This document shows, piece by piece, positions 1 to 56,756 of a stretch of DNA of 64,000 bases. Position 1 is the first letter of the stretch. Every line of letters begins with the position of its first letter. Under the pieces are notes generated by a model that was not told where the DNA came from, did not search any database, and saw only the letters and a program-made list of their open reading frames with translations. A program made the position numbers and the translations under genes. The DNA comes from Methanosphaerula palustris E1-9c (GTDB lineage: Archaea; Halobacteriota; Methanomicrobia; Methanomicrobiales; Methanospirillaceae): contig NC_011832.1 of assembly GCF_000021965.1 (NCBI RefSeq), positions 868,001-932,000 on the forward strand, read 5' to 3'.

Positions 1-1
1 G

Positions 2-532
2 AGCAGAGAACTGTTTGGCGCACGGAACGAGGAGCCGATCTCAAGACCACGCGTTCATGTTGAGGTTGTTGACTACCTGACCTTCCCGAACCGGTGCCGG
101 CACTGCGACCCGGCCCCGTGTATGCAGGTCTGCCCGACCGAGGCCCTGTACCGGGACCTGTCGACCGGTTCGGTCGCGATCCACTACAATCGGTGCATCG
201 ACTGTGCCGTCTGTGCGATGGCCTGTCCGTTCGGGGTGATCCGGTTCCAGCGGGTGCGGCAGGTGGACCTTCCCCGCGACGTGAATGCAAAGTGTGACAA
301 CTGTATCGACCGGCAGCAGAACGGTGTGATTCCTGCCTGCGCCGAGGCCTGCAAGACCGGGGCGCTGGAGTTCGGAGAGGTCAACGACCTGATCGAAAAG
401 AGCAGCCATGACTTCTCGATGAAACTTCTTCTCTCCCGGGAACCGGCCAGGGAACCGGTTGGCGAGGTTCCCTCGATGCCCGAGAACATCCGGGCGTTCC
501 GGGAGATCATGGGAACACTGGCGGATTTATAA
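2..532 (+). CDS. CooF/HycB-like 4x[4Fe-4S] ferredoxin, 5' partial
   Basis: The reading frame is open from base 2 and ends at TAA 530-532, so the gene starts outside the window. Visible cysteine groups are CRHCDPAPCMQVCP, CIDCAVCAMACP and a CDNC group completed by CAEAC, the layout of polyferredoxins such as CooF, HycB and the DMSO-reductase electron-transfer subunits. It sits 18-27 bp before cooS, so the natural reading is a cytoplasmic electron carrier that takes electrons from CO dehydrogenase and passes them to the flavoprotein subunits encoded downstream. The tail after the last cysteines (about 50 residues) is plain. Family is clear; the exact partner is inferred from position. The first ATG inside (122) is an internal methionine, not the start. 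Confidence 0.88.
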   Translation, partial: SRELFGARNEEPISRPRVHVEVVDYLTFPNRCRHCDPAPCMQVCPTEALYRDLSTGSVAIHYNRCIDCAVCAMACPFGVIRFQRVRQVDLPRDVNAKCDNCIDRQQNGVIPACAEACKTGALEFGEVNDLIEKSSHDFSMKLLLSREPAREPVGEVPSMPENIRAFREIMGTLADL

Positions 533-559
533 TTCCGGAGAGCGTGGAGGGTGAACACA

Positions 560-2449
560 ATGTATGATCCAATTGCGATAAAGAAGGTGGCAGAGAAGCG
601 GGCGCTGGACAGGACCAGCCAGATGATGATCGAGAAGACGATCGAAGACGGTGTCGAGACCGCCTGGGACCGGCTGCAGGCGCAGCAGCCGCAGTGCGGG
701 TTCGGGCAGCTCGGGCTCTGCTGCAACAACTGCTCGATGGGACCCTGTCGGATCGATCCCTTCGGCGGAACGCCGACGCGGGGTGTCTGCGGGGCGACGG
801 CGGACACGATCGTGGCGAGGAACCTGCTCGACGACCTCGCCGTCGGTGCGGCCTCCCACTCGGATCACGGCCGGGAGGTCGTCGAGACGCTCCTCCATAC
901 CGCAGAGGGGAAGGCCCAGGGTTACCAGATCACGGATGCGGTGAAGTTGCACCTGATCGCCGAGGAGTACGGGATTCCGACCGAGGGCCGGGATGACGCA
1001 GCGATCGCCGGCGACCTCGCCCGGGGGATGCTCGAGGAGTTCGGATCGATCAAGAACCGGATCCAGCTGGTTGACCGGGCCCCGGAGAAGACCCGGAAGG
1101 TCTGGCAGGATCTGAACATCACTCCCCGGGGCGTGGACCGGGAGGTCGTGGAGGCGATGCACCGGGTGCATATGGGGGTCGACGCCGATTATCTGAACAT
1201 CCTGCTGCATGCGATGCGGACCTCGCTCTCTGACGGCTGGGGCGGGTCGATGATGGCGACCGACTGCTCCGATATCCTCTTCGGGACCCCGACGCCGGTC
1301 ACTTCCTTGGCGAACCTGGGCACGCTCAGCAGGGATAAAGTCAATATCGTCCTCCACGGACACAACCCGGTCCTCTCCGAGATGATCCTCAAGGCGGTGG
1401 AGGAGCCGGCGGCCAAGGAGGCGGCCCGGGCGAAGGGTGCGGCCGGCATCAACCTGGTGGGGATGTGCTGCACCGGGAACGAGGTGCTGATGAGGCACGG
1501 GATCCCGATCGCCGGCACGATCCTGGACCAGGAACTGGCCATCGCCACCGGAGCCGTGGAGGTGATGGTGATCGATTACCAGTGCATCTTCCCGTCCATC
1601 ACGGCGACGGCCAGCTGTTATCACACGAAGGTCGTGGCGACCAGTGAGAAATCCAAGGTGCCGGGTTCGATCTACAAGGAGTTCAGGCCCGAGACGGCGC
1701 TGGACACGGCCAGGGAGATCGTGGGGATGGCGATCGAGAACTTCGCCGCCAGGGACCCGAACCGGGTCAGGATCCCGGACCGGCCGGTCCAGATGATGGC
1801 CGGGTTCTCTGAGGAGGCGATCAGAAAGGCCCTCGGAGGTACCTATAAACCTTTGATCGATGCGATCGTCGCCGGCACGATCAAGGGGGTTGTCGGGGTT
1901 GTCGGCTGCAACAACCCGAAGATCAAACAGGACTCAGGACATATCGCCCTCGGCAGGGAACTGATCAGGCGGAACATTCTCGTCGTCGAGACCGGGTGTG
2001 CGGCCATCGCGAGCGGAAAGGCCGGCCTGCTCGTCCCCGAAGCGGCGGACCTGGCCGGGGACGGGCTCAAGGCGGTCTGCAAGGCCCTGGGGATCCCGCC
2101 GGTGCTGCACATGGGCTCATGTGTCGACTGCTCCCGGATCCTGGTGATGGCCTCGCATGTGGCGGACGAACTGGGCGTTGGGATCGGCGATCTGCCGCTC
2201 GGGGGGGCCGCCCCCGAATGGTACTCGCAGAAGGCGATCGCGATCGGGACGTACTTCGTCTCGTCGGGTGTCTACACGGTGCTCGGGATCCCCCCGAAGA
2301 TCTTCGGCAGCCAGAACGTCCTCTCCCTCCTCGCGAGTCAACTCACAGGCGTGGTGAACGCCTCCTTCGCAGTCGAACCGGACCCCGTCAAGGCGGCCGA
2401 CCTGCTCGAGGCGGAGATCGATCGGAAGCGACAGGCGCTCGGGATCTGA
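560..2449 (+). CDS. cooS: Anaerobic Ni-Fe CO dehydrogenase catalytic subunit CooS
   Basis: Catalyses CO + H2O to CO2 with two electrons on a Ni-Fe-S C-cluster. About 629 residues, the usual length for monofunctional CooS. N-terminal cysteines CGFGQLGLCCNNCSMGPC supply the D- and B-clusters; C-cluster and active-site signatures follow in order: HGHNPVLSE, GMCCTGNE, DYQCIFPS, GVVGCNNPK, ETGCAAIASGKAG and GSCVDCSR. A GTG at 551 is also in frame, but GGAGG at 546-550 touches it directly, whereas ATG 560 has proper spacing from the same site, so 560 is preferred. It is followed at 35 bp by the NuoE-like gene. It is the bacterial CooS type, not the large Cdh subunit of the methanogen acetyl-CoA synthase complex. 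Identification is firm. Confidence 0.97.
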   Translation: MYDPIAIKKVAEKRALDRTSQMMIEKTIEDGVETAWDRLQAQQPQCGFGQLGLCCNNCSMGPCRIDPFGGTPTRGVCGATADTIVARNLLDDLAVGAASHSDHGREVVETLLHTAEGKAQGYQITDAVKLHLIAEEYGIPTEGRDDAAIAGDLARGMLEEFGSIKNRIQLVDRAPEKTRKVWQDLNITPRGVDREVVEAMHRVHMGVDADYLNILLHAMRTSLSDGWGGSMMATDCSDILFGTPTPVTSLANLGTLSRDKVNIVLHGHNPVLSEMILKAVEEPAAKEAARAKGAAGINLVGMCCTGNEVLMRHGIPIAGTILDQELAIATGAVEVMVIDYQCIFPSITATASCYHTKVVATSEKSKVPGSIYKEFRPETALDTAREIVGMAIENFAARDPNRVRIPDRPVQMMAGFSEEAIRKALGGTYKPLIDAIVAGTIKGVVGVVGCNNPKIKQDSGHIALGRELIRRNILVVETGCAAIASGKAGLLVPEAADLAGDGLKAVCKALGIPPVLHMGSCVDCSRILVMASHVADELGVGIGDLPLGGAAPEWYSQKAIAIGTYFVSSGVYTVLGIPPKIFGSQNVLSLLASQLTGVVNASFAVEPDPVKAADLLEAEIDRKRQALGI

Positions 2450-2483
2450 CCGCCAGAACTATTCCTTTTTTTGCGAGGAGACG

Positions 2484-2972
2484 ATGGAAGAACAGGTACT
2501 CGATCAGATCATCGCCCGCTACGCCTCTCCCACCGGAAGGGTGCTCGGGATACTCAGCGAAGTCCAGCACCAGGAAGGGTATATCCCCCGGGACGTGCTG
2601 GAGACCCTCTCGCAGAAACTGGACCTCCCGCTCTCGGACCTCTACAGTCTGGTGACCTTCTATGCCCTCTTCAGCCTGAAACCAGTGGGCGAGCATGTGA
2701 TCACAGTCTGCATGGGGACGGCCTGTCATGTGAAGGGGGCGGTTTCCCTCCTCGAGACGCTGCAGGACCTGCTGCACCTGGAGGGCGAGGCCGCCGATGA
2801 GGACGGGAAGTTCTCCCTCACGACGGAGGACAACCGGTTCACGCTGGAGATCGCCCGGTGTTTCGGCGCCTGCAGCATCGCGCCGGTGCTGCGGGTCGAC
2901 GGGAATCTCTACGGGTATGTCACCCCGGAGAGCCTCCCCGGGATTCTTGAAGGATACGGGTGGCAGCGATGA
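2484..2972 (+). CDS. NuoE/HymA-like [2Fe-2S] thioredoxin-fold subunit
   Basis: 162 residues, the size of NADH dehydrogenase 24-kDa subunits (NuoE, HndA, HymA). Helical N-terminus of about 75 residues ending in LVTFYALFSLKPVG, then the thioredoxin-like [2Fe-2S] fold with ligands in VCMGTACHVKGA (C-x4-C) and CFGACSIAPV (C-x3-C). Such subunits sit next to NuoF and relay single electrons. The stop overlaps the ATG of the next gene (ATGA at 2969-2972), so the two are translationally coupled. A RBS-like GAGGAG lies at 2475-2480. Its partner here is CO dehydrogenase, as no hydrogenase gene is in view. Confidence 0.93.
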   Translation: MEEQVLDQIIARYASPTGRVLGILSEVQHQEGYIPRDVLETLSQKLDLPLSDLYSLVTFYALFSLKPVGEHVITVCMGTACHVKGAVSLLETLQDLLHLEGEAADEDGKFSLTTEDNRFTLEIARCFGACSIAPVLRVDGNLYGYVTPESLPGILEGYGWQR

Positions 2973-4657
2973 AGATCAAAACAGCAGACGATCTTGAGAA
3001 TGTCCGGCAGGCCGGCCTCCGAAGACTGATTCCGGACCGCCCCCGTATTGCCGTGGGGCTGGCCACCTGTGGAAAGGCAGTCGGTGGCGACCAGGTCTAC
3101 GACCGTCTGCGCCAGACGATCGAGTCAGAAGGGCTGGACATTGCCCTCACCCGGGTGGGATGTTTCGGCTACTGCCGGGAGGAGCCGCTGGTGAACGTCG
3201 CGATCCCTGGAAAGCCGCTCGTGATCCTGCACCGGGTCACCGTCGACGACGTCGAGGCGATCATCCGGGCGGTCCTGAACGGAGAGGTGCCTGTAGAACT
3301 AGCCCTATGCCGGATCCCGACATGGGACCCGATCATCGGACCCCCGCTGGTCTTCGGGGACGGGTTCCCCGACATTCCGCTCTATGCCGACGTCCCGTTC
3401 TTTCGATACCAGCAGAAGGTGATCCTGCGGGCCGCCGGGCTGATCGATCCCGGGGATATCGAGGAGTATATCGCCGTGGGCGGCTACTCGGCCGCCCTAT
3501 CGGCCCTGACGACGATGGAGCCGGAGGCCGTCATCGATGTGGTGGAAAAATCCGGGCTGCGGGGCCGTGGCGGCGCCGGCTTCCCGGCCGGGCTGAAGTG
3601 GCGGATCACGCGAAAGGAGACGGCTACGGAGAAGTACATCATCTGCAATGCCGACGAGGGCGACCCCGGGGCTTACATGAACCGGAACGAGATGGAGAGC
3701 GATCCCCACATGCTGATCGAGGGGATGATCCTCGGCGCCTACGCCATCGGCGGGGTGAAGACGGGGGTGATCTACATCCGGGCCGAGTATCCGCTGGCCA
3801 TCGAACGGCTGACGAAGGCGATCGAACAGGCACGGGAGTACGGGCTGCTCGGCGACGACATCCTCGGCACCGGGTTCAGTTTCGACCTGCACCTCGCCAT
3901 CGGTGCCGGGGCCTTCGTCTGCGGGGAGTCGACGGCGCTCGTCGCCTCCATCGAGGGGAGGACCGGCCGGCCCCATCCCCGGCCGCCCCGGCTGACCGAC
4001 AAGGGGCTCTGGGGGAAGCCGACCGACCTGAACAATGTCGAGACCTGGTGCAACGTCCCGGTGATCGTCAGCCGGGGCGCCGGCTGGTACGCGGCGATCG
4101 GGGCCCCGGGCAACACCGGCACCAAGGTCTTCTCCCTCGTCGGCAAGGTCGACCGGGTCGGGCTGGTGGAGGTGCCGCTCGGGACGACCCTCGAGCGGAT
4201 CGTCATCGATATCGGCAACGGCGGCGCTGGAGGGAAGGCGGTGAAGGCCGTGCAGACCGGCGGCCCCTCGGGGGGATGCATCCCGGTCCGGCTCTTCGAT
4301 ACGCCGATGGACTACGAGAGTCTGAACCGGGTCGGCTCGATCATGGGCTCCGGCGGGATCGTCGTGATGGACGAGGATACCGGCATGGTCGACATCGCCC
4401 GGTACTTCATCAACTTCGCCATCGGAGAGTCCTGCGGGAAGTGCGTCCCCTGCAGGGAGGGGTTGAAGCACACTCTATTATTGTTGAACCGGCTCCTGGC
4501 CGGCAAGGGGACCGGGCAGGATCTGGAGACGCTCGCCCTCCTCGCCGACACGGTCGCGAAGACCTCGCTCTGCGGCCTCGGGCAGTCTGCGCCGAACCCG
4601 GTGCTGACCACCCTCGAGTACTTCAGGGACGAATACGAGGGGTTGATCGAGCGATGA
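2969..4657 (+). CDS. NuoF/HymB-like FMN- and NAD(P)-binding flavoprotein subunit
   Basis: Diaphorase subunit that moves electrons between NAD(P)H, FMN and Fe-S clusters. About 562 residues from ATG 2969; GTG 2960 is in frame but the ATGA overlap with the upstream stop favours 2969. Residues ~1-110 form an extra thioredoxin-like [2Fe-2S] domain (CGKAVGGDQV, then CFGYCREEP), as in HndC/HymB. The core has the glycine-rich NAD site GRGGAGFPAGLKW, the FMN site CNADEGDPGAYMNR, and the C-terminal [4Fe-4S] ligands ESCGKCVPCREG followed by a distal SLCGLG. The 2x[4Fe-4S] C-terminal extension often found in bifurcating HydB/HndC is absent. Part of the cooS operon. Confidence 0.95.
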   Translation: MKIKTADDLENVRQAGLRRLIPDRPRIAVGLATCGKAVGGDQVYDRLRQTIESEGLDIALTRVGCFGYCREEPLVNVAIPGKPLVILHRVTVDDVEAIIRAVLNGEVPVELALCRIPTWDPIIGPPLVFGDGFPDIPLYADVPFFRYQQKVILRAAGLIDPGDIEEYIAVGGYSAALSALTTMEPEAVIDVVEKSGLRGRGGAGFPAGLKWRITRKETATEKYIICNADEGDPGAYMNRNEMESDPHMLIEGMILGAYAIGGVKTGVIYIRAEYPLAIERLTKAIEQAREYGLLGDDILGTGFSFDLHLAIGAGAFVCGESTALVASIEGRTGRPHPRPPRLTDKGLWGKPTDLNNVETWCNVPVIVSRGAGWYAAIGAPGNTGTKVFSLVGKVDRVGLVEVPLGTTLERIVIDIGNGGAGGKAVKAVQTGGPSGGCIPVRLFDTPMDYESLNRVGSIMGSGGIVVMDEDTGMVDIARYFINFAIGESCGKCVPCREGLKHTLLLLNRLLAGKGTGQDLETLALLADTVAKTSLCGLGQSAPNPVLTTLEYFRDEYEGLIER

Positions 4658-4676
4658 TGCACAGGGAGGTCTGCTG

Positions 4677-5495
4677 ATGGACGAATCGAAGCGGTTGGTG
4701 ACGGTGACGATCAACGGGGTGGATTGCCGGGCTGAGGAGGGCGAGATCCTCCTCTCGGTGGCGACCCGCGAGGGGATCGCGATCCCGCACCTCTGCTATG
4801 AGGAGGCCCTCGACCCCTACGGCGCCTGCCGGCTCTGCATGGTCGAGGTGGAGAAGCGGGGGAAGCGAGAGATGACCACGGCCTGCACGCTGCGGGCCCT
4901 CGACGGGCTGACGGTGGTGACCGATACCCCGGAGATCGAGCGGCACCGGCGGATCATCCTTGAGCTCTACCTCGCCCAGGCCCCGAAGGCGGATCGGATC
5001 AGGGAGATGGCGGCCCGGTACGGGGTGACAAAGACCCGGTTCATCCGGAAGGTCGACCCCACCGATCCCCTCGGAAACCGGTGCGTCCTCTGCGGGCTCT
5101 GCGTCCGGGCCTGTCACGAGCTGATGGGTGCCGGTGCGATCAATTTCATCAACCGGGGGGCCTACACGGTGGTGAACACCCCCTTCTTCGAGGCGAATCC
5201 GGTCTGTCTGGGCTGCGGGGCCTGTGCCCGGGTCTGTCCGACGGACGCGGTCAGGATCGAGGATATCGATGGCGAACGGGTGATGCAGTCCTGGGGTTCG
5301 ACGAGGGTGTCGCTGGCGCAGTGCCGGGTCTGCGGGGAGTACTTCGCGCCGGCCTCACTCGGCGAGCGGATAGCCGCACGCATCGATCCGCCCCTGCGTG
5401 ACGACCTGCACGGGGTCTGCCCTGCCTGCAGGGCGAAGGGGATAGCACGAAAGGAGATCCTGGCGCAGACCGGGGGAGTGATCAGGCATGTGTGA
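4677..5495 (+). CDS. NuoG/HoxU-like iron-sulfur subunit with C-terminal zinc-ribbon-like tail
   Basis: 272 residues. Residues ~7-85 are a plant-type [2Fe-2S] ferredoxin domain (HLCYEEALDPYGACRLCMVEV and a later TTACTL); residues ~135-200 hold two [4Fe-4S] motifs, CVLCGLCVRACHE and CLGCGACARVCP. The His-Cys cluster of true NuoG is not visible and there is no molybdopterin or H-cluster domain, so this is the short HoxU-like form. The C-terminus adds CRVCGEYF and CPACRAKG, a likely zinc-binding tail. AGGGAGGT at 4662-4669 precedes the ATG, and the stop overlaps cooC by 8 bp. It probably bridges the polyferredoxin and the NuoEF-like diaphorase. Confidence 0.9.
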   Translation: MDESKRLVTVTINGVDCRAEEGEILLSVATREGIAIPHLCYEEALDPYGACRLCMVEVEKRGKREMTTACTLRALDGLTVVTDTPEIERHRRIILELYLAQAPKADRIREMAARYGVTKTRFIRKVDPTDPLGNRCVLCGLCVRACHELMGAGAINFINRGAYTVVNTPFFEANPVCLGCGACARVCPTDAVRIEDIDGERVMQSWGSTRVSLAQCRVCGEYFAPASLGERIAARIDPPLRDDLHGVCPACRAKGIARKEILAQTGGVIRHV

Positions 5496-6390
5496 GGAGC
5501 ATCAGCATTCGAGCCGCGAAGACGGAACTGTTCAGAGCGATGATCATACAAAGACAGAGCAGGGATTCCGGGTCGTCATCACCGGCAAGGGGGGCGTGGG
5601 GAAGACCACGCTGACGGCCCTCCTCTCCCATCTCTTCACAGAGCGGGGGTTCACGACGCTGGCCGTCGACGAGGACCCGCAGATGAACCTGCCCTACGCG
5701 GTGGGGGTTCCGCCGGACGAGAGCGATCGGGTCGTCCCGCTGACGAAGAACCTCGACTATGTGGAGGAGAAGACCGGCGCCCGTCCCGGGGCGGGATGGG
5801 GGTTGATGCTCTCCTTAAACCCCGACGTCTCCGATGTCGTGGAACGGTTCGGTGTCGAGGGGCCGGGCGGGGTGAAGATCCTCGTGATGGGGACGGTCGT
5901 CGCAGCGGCCGCCGGCTGCCTCTGTCCGGAGAACGCCCTCCTCGAGTCGGTGATGCGCTACATCAACCTGCGGGAGCACGAGGTGATCCTGATGGACACC
6001 CAGGCCGGCGTCGAGCACTTCGGCCGGGCGATGGCCGAGGGGTTCGATCAGGCGGTGCTGGTCACCGATCCGACCTTCAACGCCGTGCAGGTGGTGAAGC
6101 ATGCCGCGACCCTGGCCCATGAACTGGGGATCCCCACCATCCACCTGGTCGTCAACCGGGTCAGGTCCGAGGGGGATATCCGGAAGGTGCAGACGATCCT
6201 CGGCGACTCGCTCGACCTCATTTCAGATCAGTTCTACCTGCCGTACGAGGAGGGGCTGCTGGCCTGCGAGCCGGATGTCCGTCCCCTGCTGACGAGCAGT
6301 CCGCCCTCGCCGTTCATCGAGCAGGTGGCCGGCCTGCAGCGGGCCCTTGAACGGGATGGGATGGTTGGTCATTCAGATCACCATTCCTGA
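5488..6390 (+). CDS. cooC: CooC-type nickel-insertion ATPase for CO dehydrogenase
   Basis: 300 residues. MinD/SIMIBI-class ATPase with deviant Walker A GKGGVGKTT at about residues 31-39 and the CooC metal-binding C-x-C in GCLCPENAL near residue 147. The family dimerises on ATP and loads Ni into the CooS C-cluster. The first ~27 residues are an acidic, His-containing lead-in (EEHQHSS, DDHTK) that could help hold nickel; this is inference. It overlaps the NuoG-like gene and ends the operon. A His cluster also sits at the very C-terminus (HSDHHS). Confidence 0.95.
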   Translation: MCEEHQHSSREDGTVQSDDHTKTEQGFRVVITGKGGVGKTTLTALLSHLFTERGFTTLAVDEDPQMNLPYAVGVPPDESDRVVPLTKNLDYVEEKTGARPGAGWGLMLSLNPDVSDVVERFGVEGPGGVKILVMGTVVAAAAGCLCPENALLESVMRYINLREHEVILMDTQAGVEHFGRAMAEGFDQAVLVTDPTFNAVQVVKHAATLAHELGIPTIHLVVNRVRSEGDIRKVQTILGDSLDLISDQFYLPYEEGLLACEPDVRPLLTSSPPSPFIEQVAGLQRALERDGMVGHSDHHS

Positions 6391-6601
6391 CTTGGGGGAA
6401 ATTTGCATTCCGGAATGGATTTGAGATTGGAGGTGGTGCAGGTGAATTATCCTTTTAATTGCGAAGGACATTTTTCTGTTAGATCGGTATTTGGAAAATT
6501 GTTTGATCTAGATTTTCGTAAATAATTAGACTCCTTCAGGGCGTTTCATGTGGCATGTTTCTCCTAAATTTTGCCAGATCTTATCCTGGAATCCCCAATG
6601 A

Positions 6602-6904
6602 ATTCATAAGACCTACCGATCCAGGTTTGCGATCGAGTCGTCGTACAGGATGCGTAACCAGGTCAAACCTAGGACATCAGCCCGAAATCCGGTGATCCGA
6701 TATCTCTTTGCTATCATCTCGTTTCTTCTCAAAAACATCTGGATAGCAGTGCTTTGGACACGATTCTCACCCGTGAAACAAGGTCCTGGAACCATTGAGA
6801 TGGGCGCGTTCAGATTTGATCAGTTCAAGTTGTTTGTCGGGGAGGCTGTACGAGTAACCTTAAAGGTCGTGGTAAAAATTTCTGCCCTCAGAAACCCAGT
6901 ATAA
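6602..6904 (+). pseudogene. Transposase C-terminal relic (IS4/DDE type)
   Basis: A frame open from 6602 reads RFAIESSYRMRNQVKPRTS followed by RNPVIRYLFAIISFLLKNIW, the C-terminal signature of DDE transposases common in methanogens (the catalytic Glu is expected in the FAIESSYR segment). A TGA at 6599-6601 closes the frame upstream and no N-terminal part is present, so this is a dead fragment. The rest of 6391-7041 is AT-rich and shows no gene. Confidence 0.75.
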
Positions 6905-7041
6905 CTGAAGGAGACTTGGAACACTGATGAATGAAAAAGACACGGAGAAAAATTAGTTAAGTACTGAGTTCAGACTCTCAATTTTGCCCATCTAATCCAT
7001 ATAATTTGATAAAATTTAAATGAGGTATCAAAATCTAAACA

Positions 7042-10020
7042 TTACTTGTATACCCCATTTATGACAAAACCAGCCCAAAAATATGGATTGACAAATGGTC
7101 CAGGAATTGGATTCCCTCTTTTTGATATACAAGATGAAGAGTTGGCTTGATCCTGGTTTTCATTTGGTTCTTGTATTATACACGAGTAGTCCCTATCAAT
7201 ATCAAGAGAGATATTTCCGTTACACATAAAGTTCACAACTTCCTGATTCGTTGCATTACGAATAAATATTTGCGCCTCTCTCAATGCACAAACAGGAGAT
7301 AAACCGTCTATTAAGTGTGAAGAATACAATTTCATCATCAACATACTGGTAGCTACATCATTCACTGCCCAGAGAGAACTAATAACACAGGAAGCACCAG
7401 CATGCAGAAAACCTGCAGATATACCAATATATTCATCAGGGATTTTTTGATACTGAGGAATGCCTGATTCACACACAGATAATGTTACCATTCTAGCAGC
7501 TGCAATATTGAGGTCAGATAAAATATCTGCAAGTGTCCACATCCCATCTTCAAGTACTAGACCAGATTGCATAACATTTTCCTTCACAAAATAACCATGG
7601 GTGGAAAAGTGCAGGTATTGTTTATTTTGAGCAAACTTTACCACCATATCCTTGACTGCGTTTTTATCTTCGAGTGATTTAACTTTGTCAGCACCAAAAA
7701 GACTGGTGATTGCTTTACATTCAACTGTTGAAAAATAGAGATTATTATGGTTAGGTTTTACCATTAGCAATCGATCCTTTTCAGATTTCTGGATCGGTTT
7801 CATTTTTTTTATAATACTAATTGTCGTTATACTTGGAGCATACGATATCGTGTAATCATCAAGAAAAGCACGTAATAACCCATTTTCTATCCGATAAGCT
7901 GCATGGAGCGGAAGAAGTTTTAAAAGTCCGGGTGGAGTTATCAGAATTGGAGTTCCCAATTGGACATCCAGAGATTTGAGATGGGTAAAGATGGGTCCGA
8001 TAAATTGATCCCATAATCTTTTTGAAATATCCCCTATTGTTGAGATCCAATCCTCAAGAGCCTTCCTTTTTATTTCTTCACAATTGGACTCAAGTGATTT
8101 GACCCTTCTGTTGTACGTTTGTAGCCACCCTGTATGATTCTCGTTGCCATGCATGAGTACATGAAGAGCTGTACTATCAAACTCATTTAACCTCAACACA
8201 TTATGAGGGGCGATTGTGATGGTTCCAGAGGGTACGATGAAAACTGCTCCTCCCTGGGATGTAATCAGCGGAACTACAATTGCTCCTTTTTCGGGGATTT
8301 CAGCGAGGATTGTCGTAAGATCTGGATTTGTCCAAAGAAAATCCGGATTATTCACCTTGATCTCTTTCACAAGTGCTTTCAGTTTATTTCGAGCCTTTTT
8401 TATCCTCTTCGATGACATGGGATCATATTTATAAAAGTTTCTTGTAAAATCCAAGGGCATTTCTGTCATACTCTCTTTTAATTCTTTTCGTATCTTAATG
8501 AAACGCAGTTGCTTATCAGAAGGTATATTGTTTAGGTCTTGCCCAATTATCGAGAGAGTCTCATTAAAAAGACGGGTCTTCCCTTTTTCACAAGTTACTA
8601 GAGCTTCAGGCAGATGTCCCATTGATATCTGGCAATACGCAAGATTTGAATAAATATTTGCAATTTTACCAACTTCATTTTGGCGTCCTCTCTCTGTGTA
8701 CGCTTCTATGATGAGGTTATCGCTGATCTCACATGCTTTGTAATATGCGATACAGGCATCATTCCAGTTTTGCAGTTGAAAATATGAATCTCCAATTTTT
8801 TTCCAGGTATCCCTATGTTCTGCTGGATGATCATCATATGTCCAGACTTTTTGTGCTAACTGAAAGTGCGATACTGCTTCCTGAATATTTTCTTTTTTAT
8901 TCCCGGCAATTCGATTGGAATATGCGATACCCAGATTATACTGTGTTCTGGCAAATTCATGAGGATAGGCCTTTAAAGTGTAAACTTCTCCAATTAATGA
9001 GTAAATATCGATAGATGTTTCAATATTATCAGAAGGATCACCAAAGTTAAGGTTTTCGAATGCAATTGCGAGATAATTTAGAGTTGATGCATATTTTTCA
9101 GGGTCAGTCTCTGTGGTAAATACTTTAAGGGCCCAATTTGCATGGATTATGGCCAATTTAAGATTTTCAGCCCTCTCTTCTCTCTCATCTGTAACAAGGA
9201 AGAGATAGGCCATGGCTAAATTGCTATGGATCACAGCCATTTTCTCCATAATCGCGTTTTTTGTGTACACACTGAGAGCATTATTGAGATGAGTGATAGC
9301 AGTCTTAAGGTTAGTATCAGAATTTTCTTTTTGTTTCTCGAGAAAAGCCAATCCAAGATTGTTATGTGTTATTGCCCAATCATTAGGAAACTCATCCTTG
9401 TTTAAATGGTCTAGAGCAAGATTTGCATGATAGATAGCTGTATCGATGTTATCTGTCTCTTCCCCACAAATCTTATTAAGATAGGCAGTTGAAAGAGTGT
9501 TCTGAATTCTGGCATAGTCCAAAGCATATCTATCAGGAATAAATACCTTAAGAGCATTCTTTGCATGTTTAATTGATCTCTCGATATTTTTGACCTTATT
9601 TCCTCGGATTCTCTCCTTATAGGCTATTCCCAAATTATGTTGTGTTCTTGCCCATTCTTTAGGGGATGCTTTTCGTTTCCTCACTTTTAATGCTGATATT
9701 AGTAGAGTAATTGCAATCTCAATATTATCTGCTTTTACACCATAACACCGATTTATATAAGCGATGGCTAGATTATTTTGTGTCATTGCCCAATCTTCAG
9801 GATATGCACTTTGGGTGAATACCTTTAGGGCAAGTTTGTAATGACAAATAGCCTTTTCAATATTATCTGCAGAGCTCTCATTGATACGTTCCGTGTAGGC
9901 ACCAGCTAGATTACTCTGTGTTGTTGCCCATTCTTCAGGAAACTTTTCTTGAGTGTAAACTTCAAGATTCTGCAAATAGTATTGAATCCTTTCTTCAATA
10001 TACTCTTTTTTATCATTCAT
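7042..10020 (-). CDS. TPR-repeat CHAT-domain protease (caspase-like)
   Basis: 992 residues. The N-terminal ~480 residues are repeated TPR units of about 50-55 residues (pattern WAxTQxNLGxAYxxR followed by NIExAI). A linker (~490-620) leads to a C-terminal CHAT domain, the caspase/separase-like fold. The expected catalytic pair is visible: His in LHFSTHGYF and Cys in TLSVCESG, followed by SAGFLHAGASCVISSLW and the WAVND segment typical of CHAT. TPR-CHAT proteins in prokaryotes are proteases often tied to defence or cell-death systems. Base composition is far more AT-rich than the cooS operon, a sign of transfer. A 131-residue gene lies 202 bp upstream on the same strand and may be its partner. 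Confidence 0.9.
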   Translation of the reverse strand: MNDKKEYIEERIQYYLQNLEVYTQEKFPEEWATTQSNLAGAYTERINESSADNIEKAICHYKLALKVFTQSAYPEDWAMTQNNLAIAYINRCYGVKADNIEIAITLLISALKVRKRKASPKEWARTQHNLGIAYKERIRGNKVKNIERSIKHAKNALKVFIPDRYALDYARIQNTLSTAYLNKICGEETDNIDTAIYHANLALDHLNKDEFPNDWAITHNNLGLAFLEKQKENSDTNLKTAITHLNNALSVYTKNAIMEKMAVIHSNLAMAYLFLVTDEREERAENLKLAIIHANWALKVFTTETDPEKYASTLNYLAIAFENLNFGDPSDNIETSIDIYSLIGEVYTLKAYPHEFARTQYNLGIAYSNRIAGNKKENIQEAVSHFQLAQKVWTYDDHPAEHRDTWKKIGDSYFQLQNWNDACIAYYKACEISDNLIIEAYTERGRQNEVGKIANIYSNLAYCQISMGHLPEALVTCEKGKTRLFNETLSIIGQDLNNIPSDKQLRFIKIRKELKESMTEMPLDFTRNFYKYDPMSSKRIKKARNKLKALVKEIKVNNPDFLWTNPDLTTILAEIPEKGAIVVPLITSQGGAVFIVPSGTITIAPHNVLRLNEFDSTALHVLMHGNENHTGWLQTYNRRVKSLESNCEEIKRKALEDWISTIGDISKRLWDQFIGPIFTHLKSLDVQLGTPILITPPGLLKLLPLHAAYRIENGLLRAFLDDYTISYAPSITTISIIKKMKPIQKSEKDRLLMVKPNHNNLYFSTVECKAITSLFGADKVKSLEDKNAVKDMVVKFAQNKQYLHFSTHGYFVKENVMQSGLVLEDGMWTLADILSDLNIAAARMVTLSVCESGIPQYQKIPDEYIGISAGFLHAGASCVISSLWAVNDVATSMLMMKLYSSHLIDGLSPVCALREAQIFIRNATNQEVVNFMCNGNISLDIDRDYSCIIQEPNENQDQANSSSCISKRGNPIPGPFVNPYFWAGFVINGVYK

Positions 10021-10222
10021 GATACTTACCCACTGTATCGATGTGCCTGTTGTTGATATTTCTCAAAGGCTTATTTGTAAAATAAAATTACAACATCTGA
10101 TTCAGGCATTATGAAAGAGATTTCAGTTTCAATAAATCCTAATTTAAAGAAACGATGACTCAAAGAAACTCATATATCCTTAATATTCAATCATAAAGTC
10201 ATTCAAAAAGGGTTGCTTGTTC

Positions 10223-10618
10223 TTATGGTCGGGCTTTAAAGATCTCATCGGTTATTTTTTTGGCTGCTCGTTCTCCACTCTCTTGAGAAAAACCGTACTC
10301 TGAAAATATTTTTTGTATAGTCTCTTTTATCTCTCCACTCTGGGTTTTAAAGCGAGACTTTACATACTCAACGTTTATTTGGTTACAAATAAATTTATCA
10401 GCAACGTGGAGAACAATAGCACATACCATTGCCTCAAACCACGGTTCTAAAGAACCAATATCAGGTACAGGACATCTCTCTTGTTGATAACTACGAACAA
10501 ATTCAGCGCTAACCTCTTCTCTTAGGCTTTGATCACAACTACCGAAGATCTCTATTGAAATCTTCTCTACTATAGAGGTAGATATTGTTAAAACCTCATT
10601 GGGAGAAAATTTTTCCAT
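10223..10618 (-). CDS. Hypothetical protein upstream of the TPR-CHAT gene
   Basis: 131 residues with no family I recognise. Mostly helical and acidic; three cysteines (FGSCD, QERCPV, FICNQ), no membrane segment or signal peptide. AT-rich like the CHAT gene and transcribed towards it, with 202 bp between. The shared composition and orientation suggest one acquired unit, in which this protein could be a regulator or substrate of the protease. That role is inference only. Confidence 0.6.
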   Translation of the reverse strand: MEKFSPNEVLTISTSIVEKISIEIFGSCDQSLREEVSAEFVRSYQQERCPVPDIGSLEPWFEAMVCAIVLHVADKFICNQINVEYVKSRFKTQSGEIKETIQKIFSEYGFSQESGERAAKKITDEIFKARP

Positions 10619-10740
10619 ACATAGAATTGAAACAGAATTTATTATAATTTATCATTTAAAAATCTGTTAAAAAAATAATCGATTTACTTAATTAAAAATT
10701 TAAGTCATAAATTAGCTAAGAACTGATTATCATCAATGCT

Positions 10741-11313
10741 ATGCTCATGAGGGTTGCGGGATCCGATGCCGTGGAAGTCTATACGGCAGGCGAGCGGCTC
10801 ATCATGTTCGCGATCATTCCACTCATCGGGATCGAGATGGCGGTCGTATCAGTCGCCGGTGCTGCTTATGGCGGGAGACACTACGACAAGCTCCGGGTCA
10901 TTCACCACTTCTCGATCCTTCTGGGACTTGTCATTGCTCTGTGCACAAGCATAATCACGTGGCTCTTCTCGTCGCAAATAGCCTCGATTTTCACCTATTC
11001 TGTCGAGACAGCATATCTTGCTCCGTCCATTGCAGCATTCCTGGTTGTCATGTGTTTCTTTTATCCGTTCCTTCCACCGGGTATGATGTCAAGCTCGATC
11101 TTTCAAGGTGTGGGCAAGGGTATGACTTCATTTGCGATCACGGTCTTGCGTGAACTTGTCTTTGTCATTATATTTGCTTGGATTTTCGGGTTCGTTCTCG
11201 GTTTTGGCGAGTTGGGGATATGGTGGGGGATAACCGCGGGGGACATTCTTGGATGTGTCGTGGCTTATGTCTGGGCCCGGACGTATTTCCAGAGGCTTCG
11301 GGCCAACACCTGA
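10741..11313 (+). pseudogene. MATE-family efflux transporter, C-terminal fragment
   Basis: 190 residues matching the C-terminal ~40% of a MATE multidrug/Na+ antiporter (usual ~450 residues): VYTAGERLIMFAIIPLIGIE, then about five membrane helices, the FPFLPPGMMSSSIFQGVGKG-like loop and a final WARTYFQRLR. A TAA lies in frame a few codons upstream, so the N-terminal half is missing. The break coincides with the switch from the AT-rich CHAT region back to GC-rich DNA, so insertion or deletion at about 10730 is the likely cause. Confidence 0.8.
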
Positions 11314-11940: not shown

Positions 11941-12420
11941 GACCGTTCTGTCTGTTTCCTTGACCTGCAGGTTCAGGGAATGGGCCGCCGATCAGAGATG
12001 TATGCCCATCTGTATCCTGGAAATATATATGGCTCCGCCGGCAACAGGTTGATGTGGTAACCTGCCCCGGAGACCTCTCACAGAGAAGGACCACCACCCT
12101 CCGGGCAGTTTATTATCACAGTACACCCGGTCACATCTGCAGGAAGAAGAGGGACAGATCAGCATTCTCTCACGAAGCGATGTCTTGCCGACCGATCGGG
12201 CATATGGATAGCCAACAGGAATCGACAGCAGAAGTACCAGAACCGGACAAGCATAACTATCAGGACCCTTCAGCAGGTTTTCGAGCGTACACCGAGGCTC
12301 TCAAACCAGAAGTGCTGAAGGGTCAACCAGTACATCTGGATACATAATAACCCTGAAAAATTCCCATTCCCACACCTTTTCCGATATGTACAGGTCCAAT
12401 TCAGGACCTGTATGTCTCAC
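11941..12420. repeat. Long interspersed repeat B, copy 1
   Basis: About 480 bp that recurs at 13305-13776 (near full length) and 14562-14690 (left part only). Shared blocks include GTTTCCTTGACCTGC, TGTATCCTGGAAATATATATGG, GGAGACCTCTCACAGAGAAGG and CTTCAGCAGGTTTTCGAGC. The right end is an inverted repeat, TACAGGTCC 12389-12397 with GGACCTGTA 12404-12412. No open frame is conserved between copies, so it looks non-coding. Confidence 0.8.
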
Positions 12421-13305: not shown

Positions 13306-13776
13306 CGACGGTCCGTTTCCTTGACCTGCTGGTTCAGGGGTTGGACCGTTGATCAGAGGAGTATACCCACTGGTATCCTGGAAATATATATGGCACCGCC
13401 GGCAACAGGTTGGTGTGGTAACCTGCCTCGGAGACCTCTCACAGAGAAGGACCACCACTCTCCGGCAGTTCATTATCACAATTCACCCGGTCATATCTGC
13501 AGGAAGAAGAGAGACAGCCACTATGGGATTACTCTCACGAAGAGATGTCTTGTCGACCGACCGGGGGATATGGATAGCATCAGGAATCGATAGCAGAAGT
13601 ACCAGAACCGGACAGCACATCATTCAGGACCCTTCAGCAGGTTTTCGAGCATACACCGCGGCTTTCAGACCAGAAGTGCTGAAGGGTCAACCAGTGCAAC
13701 TTGATAAAATAATACATGGAAAATTCCCATACCTTTTCTGAGATGTACTCGTCCGTTCAGGACCTGTACATCTCAA
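13305..13776. repeat. Long interspersed repeat B, copy 2
   Basis: Near full-length copy of the repeat at 11941-12420. It also ends in an inverted repeat (GATGTAC 13742-13748 with GTACATC 13766-13772, extended by GTCC/GGAC with a two-base mismatch). The terminal hairpin therefore persists while its bases differ. Confidence 0.8.
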
Positions 13777-23229: not shown

Positions 23230-23571
23230 ATGAATGAAGAAAAATCTCAGTCTCCTGAGGTTGAGAACATTGTTGATTCAGAATCTATCTCCGATACCAT
23301 CGATCTCGAGGTAATTTCCACGAAAATCTTTACGGGAGGGCTGACACTCAACACAGTGTCATCTCTTCTGGTATATCGACAGGATCTCAAACTTACATCT
23401 GAATCTATGGATTACGCTGCTCTGGTGATAACATCCATTGAAGAGAAAGAGGACGGATCGATTTCGGTTAATCCTCTCGCTCTTGCAGCTACATCGATGG
23501 ATCATGTCAGTCAATTTTCCGGGATTGTTGAGTGGATCCAACTCCGGTTCCTTCCTCTGCCAGGTACCTGA
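23230..23571 (+). pseudogene. Degenerate TATA-binding protein paralogue
   Basis: 113 residues. Residues 1-30 parallel the intact TBP at 23747 (NEEKSQSPEVENIVDSESIS against SEEKFQSPKIENIVASGSIA, both followed by IDLE), and the upstream 35 bp are identical. A weak LLVYRQDLKLTS segment parallels the TBP VYR-D-PK loop. After that similarity is lost, and the second TBP repeat is missing. Either a decaying duplicate or a short protein that could still compete; decay is more likely. Confidence 0.6.
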
Positions 23572-23746: not shown

Positions 23747-24298
23747 ATGAGTGAAGAAAAATTTCAGTCTCCTAAGATCGAGAATATCGTTGCTTCGGGA
23801 TCTATCGCTGATTCTATCGATCTTGAGATGCTCTCTGCTAAACTGGAAAACTGCGACCTCAATACAAAACGATTTCCTGGAGCAGTATTCCGACTTCAAA
23901 AACCCAAAATCGCGGTACTCATATTTTCTTCCGGAAAGGTAGTAATAACTGGCGCCAGAAGCCACGAGGATTTACTCCAGGGTCAGGAGATTCTCATTCA
24001 GACAATGAAAGATGCTGGAGTCATCTGTCATGATACGCCGGATGTGGCTGTTACAAATATGGTCTGTTCGTATGACCTCGGAAAGTACATTAACCTGAAT
24101 AAGGTAGTTATTACGCTTAACCTGGAAAATATCGAGTACGAACCGGAACAGTTTCCCGGGTTAGTATATCGTATATCTGATCCAAAAATTGTTGCTCTTC
24201 TCTTTTCATCAGGAAAAATAATTCTGACGGGGGGGAAAACTATGGAAAATATTGAGAGAGGAGTTGCATTCCTTGAACAAATGTTAGGGAATATTTAA
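23747..24298 (+). CDS. tbp: TATA-box-binding protein (TBP)
   Basis: 183 residues, the archaeal TBP length. Two imperfect saddle repeats: IENIVASGSIADSIDLEML, RFPGAVFRLQKPKIAVLIFS and SGKVVITGARSHED in the first; VTNMVCSYDLGKYINLNKVV, QFPGLVYRISDPKIVALLFS and SGKIILTGGKTMEN in the second. It binds promoter TATA boxes with TFB to recruit RNA polymerase. Some first-repeat positions depart from the TBP consensus (AVFRLQKPK in place of LVYR-DPK) and the usual acidic C-terminal tail is absent. AT-rich neighbours and a decayed tandem copy suggest this is an accessory TBP, not the housekeeping one. Confidence 0.93.
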   Translation: MSEEKFQSPKIENIVASGSIADSIDLEMLSAKLENCDLNTKRFPGAVFRLQKPKIAVLIFSSGKVVITGARSHEDLLQGQEILIQTMKDAGVICHDTPDVAVTNMVCSYDLGKYINLNKVVITLNLENIEYEPEQFPGLVYRISDPKIVALLFSSGKIILTGGKTMENIERGVAFLEQMLGNI

Positions 24299-53813: not shown

Positions 53814-54614
53814 TTAGTCTAATTGTCCACTGATATGAGCAGTGTACCTTCCGGATTCTGTGATTGAAACGTAAACGCGTGTACCTTCCTTTTTACGATT
53901 CACAAATCCCTGTTTCTCCAGTTTGGATAAAATTGTTTTATCCAATTTCATTAACTGATTGCTCTGCAGAGTCCGCATTCTACTTTTTTCAACTTCATCA
54001 AATAATTCCTCGAATCCCATTACATTTTCTGATTTTAGAAAATCTAAGATCTCCTTCATTTTTTTTCTCTTATTCTCATTACACAAAAAAAGTAAAATTC
54101 TCAAACCGATTGGATCTGGCATTACAATTTGGAAATTACTTAATTTTTCTGTTTTACCTTCTCGACAAATACTTAATCCATGTTTTTGACGAAGAATTTC
54201 TTTTGAGGGGTAATCATCTGAGTGGACATAATAGACATTAGTATCATGAGCCATACCAGCGAGTGTAGCAGCAACTGATGTAAGGCGACCAGCTGCCGAC
54301 ATATTGACAAAAATTCGATTGTTTTGTTTCTTTTCTTTGACTATTATTTTTGATACATTTTTCATTACATCCAGAAGATCAAATAAATCTACTTTAACCA
54401 TTGGTTGGACATCAATTCCTTTGGCGACTAAACTCTTTCTGACTTTTTCATAATAGTAATGTTGTTTTTTGCTCATCTCGTCATCAGAGTTAATATCATT
54501 CCAATTGGTGAGAAGATAAACACGGTCAGCTTTGATTTTTTCAAATGGTTTTATTGCCCGGTCGATTTCGTGACCTAATGGAATAATATGAACAGTTTCT
54601 TCGATGTTCGTCAT
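53814..54614 (-). CDS. CARF-like Rossmann sensor with winged-helix DNA-binding domain
   Basis: 266 residues. Residues ~1-150 are a Rossmann-like fold of the DUF6293/HFX_2341 and CARF type: VHIIPLGHEIDRAIKPFEKI, ADRVYLLTN, RIFVNMSAAGRLTSVAATLA (the ligand-loop region) and TNVYYVHSDDYPSK. Residues ~165-262 are a winged helix: IGLRILLFLCNENKRKKMKE, SRMRTLQSNQLMKLDKTILS, KLEKQGFVNRKKEGTRVYVS. CARF domains bind cyclic oligonucleotides in CRISPR type III signalling; this one diverges from a CBASS, not a CRISPR locus. AT-rich, same island as the CBASS. Four TGCTAA boxes lie just before its ATG. Role as the CBASS regulator is inference. Confidence 0.85.
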   Translation of the reverse strand: MTNIEETVHIIPLGHEIDRAIKPFEKIKADRVYLLTNWNDINSDDEMSKKQHYYYEKVRKSLVAKGIDVQPMVKVDLFDLLDVMKNVSKIIVKEKKQNNRIFVNMSAAGRLTSVAATLAGMAHDTNVYYVHSDDYPSKEILRQKHGLSICREGKTEKLSNFQIVMPDPIGLRILLFLCNENKRKKMKEILDFLKSENVMGFEELFDEVEKSRMRTLQSNQLMKLDKTILSKLEKQGFVNRKKEGTRVYVSITESGRYTAHISGQLD

Positions 54615-54615
54615 A

Positions 54616-54648
54616 TGCTAACAATGCTAAATGTGCTAATTATGCTAA
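54616..54648. promoter_or_regulatory. Array of four TGCTAA boxes at 9-bp spacing
   Basis: TGCTAA occurs at 54616, 54625, 54634 and 54643, exactly 9 bp apart, immediately upstream of the CARF-HTH start codon (54614) and within the 300-bp divergent region shared with the CBASS operon. Regular iterons of this kind usually bind an oligomeric regulator; the CARF-HTH protein is the obvious candidate. The rest of 54649-54914 is AT-rich promoter DNA. Confidence 0.7.
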
Positions 54649-54914
54649 AATAAAACTGTCCATATAAAATTGTGACAAAATATTCTAAGAGGTCATCCCA
54701 AAACTTCCTTTCATCTCCATATCAGCTGATTATAGGTCATTCCATCGGCGAGACAAAGGGTAGTGATTTGTTTTGGGATAAGATCTAAGAAAATTCAATT
54801 ACTCACAATTATCTGAAACGTGGAATCGCGTTTGAAACGAGAAAAGGCCAAGAGCATTGTGTTATCAAGTTGGTGTATTTGATTGACTTCGGTATCTATC
54901 ATAACTAAATTTTT

Positions 54915-55823
54915 ATGGTGAAGAATATGGGAATTTCAGAGAAACAGTTAGAAACTTGGTCTAATCAAGGTGCAATAATTACCTCACAAAAAACACACGA
55001 ATCGATTAGAAATGCATTGAATAATTCAGAACTCCTAAAAGAAAGGAATTATGATGTGTATCTTCAAGGATCTTATCGGAATTCAACAAATATATACGGT
55101 GAGAGTGATGTGGACGTAGTGGTTCAACTGAATTCTGTATATAATTATAACATTTCAGGATTGACACAATCAGCCCAATCAAAATTTCATGAAGAACATG
55201 ATTGTGTTACATATGGATACGAATCATTTCGATCCGATATTCTCAATGTATTAATTGAGTACTATGGGGCTTCGGAAATTGCTGATGGTAATAAGTCAAT
55301 AAAGATAGCAAGGGGGTCTAACAGATTAGCCGCAGATGTCGTTGTATGTACGCAATATCGGTATTATACAAAGTATAATGGAATTAATGATGAGAATTAT
55401 ATTGAGGGTATGGCATTTTATCCGCAAAACGGATGTCAAAAAATTGTAAATTATCCAAAATATCATTTTAACAACGGGGCAAAAAAAAATAATCCTCAAA
55501 ATACGAATGCTTGGTTTAAGCCAGTTGTTAGAATGTTTAAAAATGCTCGAATAAAATTGGTGAATGACGAGAAAATTTCCAAAGGGTTAGCTCCTTCGTA
55601 TTTTTTGGAATGTTTACTCTATAATGTACCGAATTCAAAATTTGGTAAAAACTATTCTGACTCATATCAGAACATTATCAATTGGTTATCTGATTGTAAT
55701 CTTGACGATTTTTTATGCCAACACGGGTTATATAAATTATTTGGATTCTCAACAGAGCAATGGTCAAAAGAGAATGCAGAGACGTTAATTAAAAATTATG
55801 TGGATCTTTGGAAAGATTGGTGA
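54915..55823 (+). CDS. CD-NTase (cGAS/DncV-like nucleotidyltransferase) of a CBASS
   Basis: 302 residues. Nucleotidyltransferase core: YLQGSYRNSTNIYGESDVDV gives the GS (G52, S53) and first two metal Asp residues (D65, D67); NRLAADVVVC gives the third (D141). C-terminal OAS-like helical domain (KPVVRMFKNARIKL, SKGLAPSYFLECLLYN). These enzymes make cyclic di- or trinucleotides on phage infection. ATG 54927 (MGISEKQ...) has GGTGA a few bases upstream and is an equally good start. It overlaps the effector gene by 26 bp. No Cap2/Cap3 or HORMA/TRIP13 genes follow, so this is a minimal type I CBASS. Confidence 0.92.
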   Translation: MVKNMGISEKQLETWSNQGAIITSQKTHESIRNALNNSELLKERNYDVYLQGSYRNSTNIYGESDVDVVVQLNSVYNYNISGLTQSAQSKFHEEHDCVTYGYESFRSDILNVLIEYYGASEIADGNKSIKIARGSNRLAADVVVCTQYRYYTKYNGINDENYIEGMAFYPQNGCQKIVNYPKYHFNNGAKKNNPQNTNAWFKPVVRMFKNARIKLVNDEKISKGLAPSYFLECLLYNVPNSKFGKNYSDSYQNIINWLSDCNLDDFLCQHGLYKLFGFSTEQWSKENAETLIKNYVDLWKDW

Positions 55824-56436
55824 GATTTTGCATTCTTATAGTATAGATACCGATGAAAGGAAAAAAATTCCAATTTATTTAGCAATTGTAAGTGTAGTTC
55901 TGATAGGAATTTTCTCCTATATGATGAGTATCATCAATATCTCACTTCCTTGGTTCCTTGAACCCTTATACCTGAGTGCACCATCTGCAATTACACTTTC
56001 TTTTTTCCTGTCCTTCCATTATGATAAATATCTCTGGAGATTACCAATATTTCAACTATTAGGTATATCTAAAACTCCAAATTTTAACGGAAATTGGTTT
56101 GGAATAATTAATACCTCGTATGATGGTCACAATGAATCACATGATGTAAAAATCAATATTACTCAACAATGGCAAACCATTAGTATTGTTCTCGAAACTC
56201 AATATTCAGCGTCTCATAGTTTTATTGCAGGAATATTGATTAACGAACATCGAGGAATTACCCTTCATTACGGGTATAAAAACGAACCATTTTCGAACGC
56301 TGTTCAAACGATGCATGCACATCGTGGAACAACTTGGTTGATTTTTAATGAAGAAACTGACTCATTAGAAGGAGAGTATTATTCGGGACGAGATAGGATT
56401 ACACATGGAATATTAAAGTTAAAACGTGAAAAATAA
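55798..56436 (+). CDS. Cap15-type two-TM beta-barrel CBASS effector
   Basis: 212 residues. Two membrane helices (IPIYLAIVSVVLIGIFSYMM, ~24-45, and LSAPSAITLSFFLSFHY, ~59-75) are followed by a beta-rich domain that opens with PNFNGNWFGIINTSYDG and continues with HDVKINITQQWQTISIVLET, GITLHYGYKN and LEGEYYSGRDRITHGILKLK. This is the SMODS-associated 2TM-beta layout of Cap15, which oligomerises on binding a cyclic nucleotide and disrupts the membrane. Overlap with the CD-NTase gene ensures coexpression. Confidence 0.85.
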   Translation: MWIFGKIGEILHSYSIDTDERKKIPIYLAIVSVVLIGIFSYMMSIINISLPWFLEPLYLSAPSAITLSFFLSFHYDKYLWRLPIFQLLGISKTPNFNGNWFGIINTSYDGHNESHDVKINITQQWQTISIVLETQYSASHSFIAGILINEHRGITLHYGYKNEPFSNAVQTMHAHRGTTWLIFNEETDSLEGEYYSGRDRITHGILKLKREK

Positions 56437-56721: not shown

Positions 56722-56756
56722 AAGCATTTTCGGTCAGAGTCTGCCCGAAAATGCTT
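56722..56756 (-). terminator. Stem-loop at the end of the hsdRMS operon
   Basis: AAGCATTTTCGG 56722-56733 pairs with CCGAAAATGCTT 56745-56756 (12-bp stem). It spans the hsdS stop codon and could end the operon transcript. Confidence 0.5.

What the first reader, a model, noticed from the sequence alone, without database searches (positions are those of the whole stretch)
7042..10618. AT-rich TPR-CHAT protease island with an uncharacterised partner gene
A 992-residue TPR-CHAT protein with an intact His/Cys pair and an upstream 131-residue protein share composition and strand, and interrupt GC-rich DNA where a MATE gene is broken. TPR-CHAT proteases are known effectors (for example in Craspase), but no CRISPR type III-E genes are here. 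The small gene could be its activator or substrate.
Basis: partly seen in the sequence, partly recalled or inferred. Interest (0 to 1): 0.6.

Follow-up and report, generated by a model that had tools for sequence, protein, structure and literature searches.

The report
Acquired caspase-like protease in an archaeon
A methanogen-like archaeon carries a horizontally acquired gene for a caspase-like TPR-CHAT protease of a known, widespread kind, beside a small gene with no known relatives, so a dedicated partnership between the two cannot be shown from sequence.

Summary
The genes are real. Window 7042-10020(-) encodes 992 aa: 46-residue TPR-like repeats, then a full CHAT domain (PF12770, E 2e-47). 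His808 and Cys850 align with the Csx29 dyad and are kept in 22 of 22 CHAT relatives examined. It is the only CHAT match in this genome. It is not Csx29 (67 bits, cut-off 300), and the genome has no RAMP protein. The best full-length relative (35% identity) lies in another archaeon among TCAD7-CHAT and Trypco2-Pepco genes, so this is a stray member of the known caspase/trypsin conflict network. The 131-aa gene is an orphan: no relative in 392 phylum and 232 order genomes, plasmids, phages, viral contigs or PDB, or in 23 CHAT/TPR loci. Its helical model matches no fold securely. The left edge is the end of a multi-copy insertion sequence; the right edge is a MATE gene lacking its N-terminal 276 residues. 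An ordinary acquired, probably defence-related gene; the partnership is unproven.

The parts
7042..10020 (-). TPR-CHAT protein, 992 aa: TPR-like repeats of 46 residues (about residues 1-480), linker, CHAT protease domain 665-989 with H808 and C850
   Evidence: 138-nt repeat spacing
10223..10618 (-). 131-aa orphan protein, modelled as six helices (single-sequence model, mean pLDDT 76.7, pTM 0.75)
   Evidence: no relatives
10021..10222 (-). 202-bp gap between the two genes, with A/T-rich stretches that could hold a separate promoter for the CHAT gene
   Evidence: sequence printed; promoter reading is inference
6582..6967 (.). 386-bp end of a multi-copy insertion sequence (about 1.3 kb in longer copies; transposase weakly DDE_Tnp_1, below the curated cut-off), truncated here; contains the 84-aa ORF 6650-6904(+)
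10735..11313 (+). C-terminal part of a MATE transporter; N-terminal 276 residues missing

Best explanation
A stand-alone TPR-CHAT cysteine protease, acquired horizontally together with a short AT-rich stretch and left between an insertion-sequence remnant and a truncated MATE gene. Most likely mechanism: the N-terminal TPR-like solenoid binds a signal or partner protein and holds the C-terminal caspase-like CHAT domain inactive; on sensing infection or stress the dyad H808/C850 is freed to cut one or a few host or partner proteins, giving a defence or dormancy response. Shown here: domain make-up, intact conserved dyad, foreign composition, sporadic distribution, and a relative whose neighbours are known conflict-system genes. 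Inferred: protease activity, signal, substrate and outcome. The 131-aa neighbour is a co-acquired orphan whose link to the protease is open.
For: PF12770 over its cut-off (162 against 24 bits). H808/C850 align with the catalytic region of Csx29, whose H615 and C658 are shown to be catalytic in PMC10028731 (passages); both residues kept in 22 of 22 CHAT relatives given. CHAT-domain tree: the window protein falls with a second archaeon, a Bradyrhizobium plasmid protein and a third archaeon (four rows, support 96/92). The best full-length relative (G327; 35% identity, E 2e-170) sits with a TCAD7-CHAT gene, a 249-aa adaptor-like gene and a Trypco2-Pepco gene; PMC7159879 ties Trypco2 and caspase/alpha-beta-hydrolase pairs to conflict systems (passages), and the Hymenobacter relative has a trypsin-like and an alpha/beta-hydrolase neighbour. 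Sporadic: a match at E 1e-10 in 43 of 392 phylum genomes, most covering only the TPR part; by my reading the CHAT part is hit in 10 of the 43 (own included), and only G000 and G327 match over nearly the full length. In the family 10 of 108 genomes have any match at E 1e-5 and none but its own a full-length one. Codon usage resembles the AT-rich CBASS cyclase and CARF genes of the same window (0.80 and 0.77).
Against: No defence gene lies next to it in the window and no PADLOC model matches it at E 1. No activity, substrate or expression data. Similar codon usage may only reflect AT richness. Some CHAT proteins have other jobs (HetF, cell division in Anabaena: PMC8406250, seen in the search listing and start of abstract). 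The structure model of the 992-aa protein failed (mean pLDDT 36.8), so the autoinhibition step is unsupported by structure.
Confidence: 0.6

Rival explanations
1. One reading: a dedicated two-gene module in which the 131-aa helical protein is the activator, inhibitor or substrate of the CHAT protease.
For: Adjacent, same strand, both AT-rich with low GC at third positions; codon usage of the two genes correlates at 0.48 against about -0.1 with the genes of the GC-rich left flank; the small protein gives a fairly confident helical model even from a single sequence. The best archaeal relative also has a small gene directly upstream of its TPR-CHAT gene (249 aa).
Against: No homologue beside any of 23 CHAT or TPR loci or anywhere else searched. 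202-bp gap, and A/T-rich TATA-like sequence upstream of each gene allows separate transcripts (by eye). The 249-aa protein upstream in G327 is not similar and appears by eye to share a domain with its own CHAT protein, whereas the 131-aa protein has no match to its CHAT neighbour (blastp).
Confidence: 0.17
2. A cellular, non-defence role of the CHAT protein (cell division, signalling or protein quality control), as for HetF in cyanobacteria.
For: CHAT proteins with such roles exist (HetF, PMC8406250; listing and start of abstract only).
Against: Sporadic distribution even within its family (10 of 108 genomes with any match, none other full-length) and foreign composition.
Confidence: 0.13
3. 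A passive remnant of a mobile element, no longer used.
For: Flanked by a truncated insertion sequence and a truncated MATE gene.
Against: 992 codons open with an intact conserved dyad. Selection cannot be measured without an orthologue.
Confidence: 0.1

Closest known systems
Csx29 (TPR-CHAT of type III-E CRISPR, Craspase)
   Same: N-terminal TPR part and C-terminal CHAT domain; aligned His and Cys.
   Different: 67 bits against a cut-off of 300 for the Csx29 model; longer TPR part with 46-residue repeats; no RAMP protein in the genome, so no Cas7-11; no Csx30, Csx31 or sigma-factor gene recognised beside it.
TPR-CHAT genes of the caspase/trypsin conflict network (Trypco2, TCAD, EAD, alpha/beta-hydrolase neighbours; PMC7159879, PMC8195603)
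   Same: Closest full-length archaeal relative lies among such genes; Hymenobacter relative beside trypsin-like and alpha/beta-hydrolase genes.
   Different: The window copy has none of these neighbours; its only close neighbour is the orphan gene.
BovA of the Borvo system (CHAT protein; name and role recalled)
   Same: CHAT domain; two CHAT proteins of G327 and the one of Bradyrhizobium match BovA models weakly.
   Different: The window protein matches no PADLOC model at E 1.

Membership tests
CHAT domain family (PF12770) | Score over the curated cut-off over most of the profile | tested here: met
   162.3 bits against 24; profile positions 3-288 of 289
CHAT domain family (PF12770) | Catalytic His/Cys dyad | tested here: met
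   H808 and C850; same letters in 22 of 22 relatives; aligned with Csx29
Csx29 / type III-E Craspase | Reaches the curated cut-off of the Csx29 model NF041237 | tested here: not met
   67.1 bits against 300
Csx29 / type III-E Craspase | Cas7-11 (RAMP domains) in the genome | tested here: not met
   PF03787: 0 matches in the own genome; the control rings in 4 of 14 genomes
Caspase/trypsin conflict network (PMC7159879) | Neighbouring Trypco, EAD, alpha/beta-hydrolase or STAND/VMAP gene | tested here: not met
   Flanking genes are a CbiA/ArsA-like ATPase, an orphan and a MATE fragment; met by relatives
Borvo (BovA) | Match to a PADLOC BovA model | tested here: not met
   No PADLOC family at E 1 for the window protein
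CBASS 4TM effector (for the 131-aa protein) | Match over the 4TM model | tested here: not met
   19.5 bits over 51 of 305 positions; no similarity to a true member found in a relative (tblastn E 1.8); no such match in the own genome at E 0.001
ECF sigma factor (for the 131-aa protein) | Fold or sequence match | tested here: inconclusive
   Z 5-6.6 to several sigma factors among many unrelated helical bundles; no profile match to cyanobacterial sigma-like neighbours of CHAT genes; no Pfam sigma match
Active CHAT protease | Proteolysis in vitro | not testable with these tools
   needs an assay

The most novel reading that the evidence does not exclude
The orphan helical protein and the TPR-CHAT protease form a private archaeal two-gene protease module, the small protein being its sensor, inhibitor or substrate, unlike any described CHAT partner.
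Probability: 0.15. Interest if true: 0.5.

Novelty: new member of a known kind. Interest (0 to 1): 0.2.

Why it matters
It adds a full-length, dyad-bearing TPR-CHAT protease without CRISPR in an archaeon, and its nearest archaeal relative places this branch inside the trypsin/caspase conflict network. If the orphan neighbour proved to be a partner, it would be a new kind of CHAT regulator. As it stands, it is one more sporadic acquired protease gene.

Tried and rejected
Relatives of the 131-aa protein: peptide-pattern scans of genome contigs and viral contigs found none; these scans need exact short peptides and can miss distant relatives, and the same kind of scan also found nothing for the CHAT protein, although it does have distant relatives. 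tblastn against plasmids and phages found none; whole-genome searches of 392 phylum, 232 order and 232 class genomes found only the own copy at E 0.01 (the sets overlap, and the class search held as many genomes as the order search). At E up to 1 the order search listed matches in 29 of 232 genomes, own included, best other E 0.012: noise by my reading. No match in PDB sequences.

Fold of the 131-aa protein: Foldseek against PDB and viral models gave no match at E 0.001 (best 1.1 and 0.65). VIA-align gave one row at Z 8.5 (the terpene cyclase CotB2, one variant; other CotB2 entries score 5.1-5.3) and many at 5-6.7 (spidroin domains, sigma factors); for helical bundles that is the chance range stated by the tool. 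A sigma-factor idea was tempting, because Craspase and cyanobacterial CHAT loci have sigma factors, but the sequence comparison failed and a bacterial sigma factor would not be expected to serve an archaeal polymerase (general knowledge). The weak PADLOC 4TM match was followed and dropped.

Repeats at the island edges that would mark a target-site duplication: none convincing. No tRNA in the window. Prophage or virus origin: no CHAT match in phages or viral contigs. Structure of the CHAT protein from its single sequence: unusable.

Two scripts of mine first took the wrong ORF as the MATE paralogue and one failed on a file name after printing the composition figures used here; one search is the one relied on for MATE. 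In one search, three of 23 CHAT proteins (L060, L050b, L100) were left out of the tree as short or weak. In some searches ORFs that run off a contig end were ignored, so two of the 23 loci (L052, L069) show no CHAT ORF there; part of the output was cut.

Full report
What is there. Two ORFs lie on the minus strand in an AT-rich stretch: 992 aa at 7042-10020 and 131 aa at 10223-10618. GC is 0.37 in 6400-10740, against 0.65 to the left, 0.52 to the right and 0.53 for the window. So the contrast is real, but the GC-rich left flank is as unusual as the island.

The large protein. It has TPR-like repeats spaced 138 nt, i.e. 46 residues, and a full CHAT domain (PF12770, 162 bits against a cut-off of 24). 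H808 and C850 stand where Csx29 has its dyad (the catalytic role of H615 and C658 in Csx29 is from passages of PMC10028731). The same two letters are found in 22 of 22 CHAT relatives that I aligned. The genome has no other CHAT match. The protein is not Csx29 (67 bits, cut-off 300), and the genome has no RAMP match at all.

Distribution and kin. In 392 phylum genomes a match at E 1e-10 occurs in 43, but most rows cover only TPR; by my reading 10 of the 43 (own included) have the CHAT part. One genome, G327, matches over residues 13-990 at 35% identity. In the own family 10 of 108 genomes have some match at E 1e-5, none but the own over full length. In plasmids 78 records match, 8 over at least 80% of the query, among the listed ones Nostoc, Bradyrhizobium and Hymenobacter. 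In a CHAT-domain tree of 20 rows the window protein sits with G327, G110 and Bradyrhizobium (96/92); its pairing with G327 is weak (84/57). This is the pattern of a horizontally moving gene.

Neighbours of relatives. In G327 the gene order is TCAD7-CHAT, a 249-aa protein without Pfam match, TPR-CHAT, and on the other strand Trypco2-Pepco. The Hymenobacter plasmid gene lies beside a trypsin-like and an alpha/beta-hydrolase gene. Three cyanobacterial plasmid loci have DUF1822 and a sigma-like gene upstream of CHAT; neighbourhoods with an ECF sigma factor and DUF1822 beside caspase genes are already described in PMC8195603 (passages). Trypco2 and caspase/alpha-beta-hydrolase pairs are described as parts of conflict systems in PMC7159879, which also notes a few archaeal cases (passages). 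I therefore place the window gene with this network by kinship; it lacks the marker neighbours itself.

The small protein. No second member was found. As an ORF it is longer than chance in its own stretch (3 of 2000 shuffles) but not for the whole island (11 of 300). Its single-sequence model is helical with mean pLDDT 76.7, which favours a real protein, but no fold match is secure. It shows no similarity to the CHAT protein. Between the genes are 202 bp; sequence upstream of each contains TATA-like A/T stretches (by eye), so separate transcription is possible.

Edges. On the left, 6582-6967 is the end of an insertion sequence with at least five longer copies in the genome (about 1.3 kb shared between copies, 89-97% identical); the rest of it is missing here. 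On the right, the MATE reading frame begins at 10735, matching residues 277-464 of a 473-aa paralogue of the same genome at 55% identity; the first 276 residues are not in the window. A plain insertion into MATE would leave both halves; this looks like an insertion or recombination followed by loss.

Verdict. A new member of a known kind: a stand-alone TPR-CHAT protease, probably a defence or conflict effector, acquired by an archaeon. I found no paper naming it: a search for Methanosphaerula palustris with caspase gave none, and the four-term search CHAT domain, archaea, caspase, tetratricopeptide gave five papers, none by title about this gene. That the host is Methanosphaerula palustris rests only on my recall of its genome size (2,922,917 bases).

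Noticed in passing
window 53814-56436: A second AT-rich island (GC 0.32-0.41) holds a CBASS pair: CD-NTase-like cyclase 54915-55823(+) and Cap15 effector 55798-56436(+), beside a CARF protein 53814-54614(-) and a type I restriction specificity gene 56734-58149(-).
   Followed up: partly
window 23747-24298: A TATA-binding protein gene (PF00352, E 2e-54) in a third AT-rich patch, preceded at 23230-23571 by an ORF whose start resembles it but which has no Pfam match, perhaps a decayed copy.
   Followed up: partly
window 1-6390: Unusually GC-rich stretch (0.65 against 0.53 for the window) with NuoF-like (2960-4657), ferredoxin-like (4677-5495) and CbiA/ArsA-like ATPase (5488-6390) genes; possibly acquired.
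   Followed up: no
window 11950-12104 and 13311-13465 (also 12250-12364 and 13614-13728): A direct repeat of about 400 bp in two blocks, spaced about 1362 bp, 82-89% identical, with no clear gene.
   Followed up: no
L050 4136-10819: Archaeal gene cluster TCAD7-CHAT, 249-aa repeat protein, TPR-CHAT, Trypco2-Pepco: a fuller conflict system than the one in the window; the 249-aa protein seems by eye to carry three copies of a domain also found once at the N-terminus of its TPR-CHAT neighbour.
   Followed up: partly
L094 894-6988; L096 487-6865; L099 640-6988: Cyanobacterial plasmids carry a sigma-like gene, DUF1822 and CHAT in a row; only the first is annotated as a sigma factor and none matches a Pfam sigma model. 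A similar association is already in print.
   Followed up: partly
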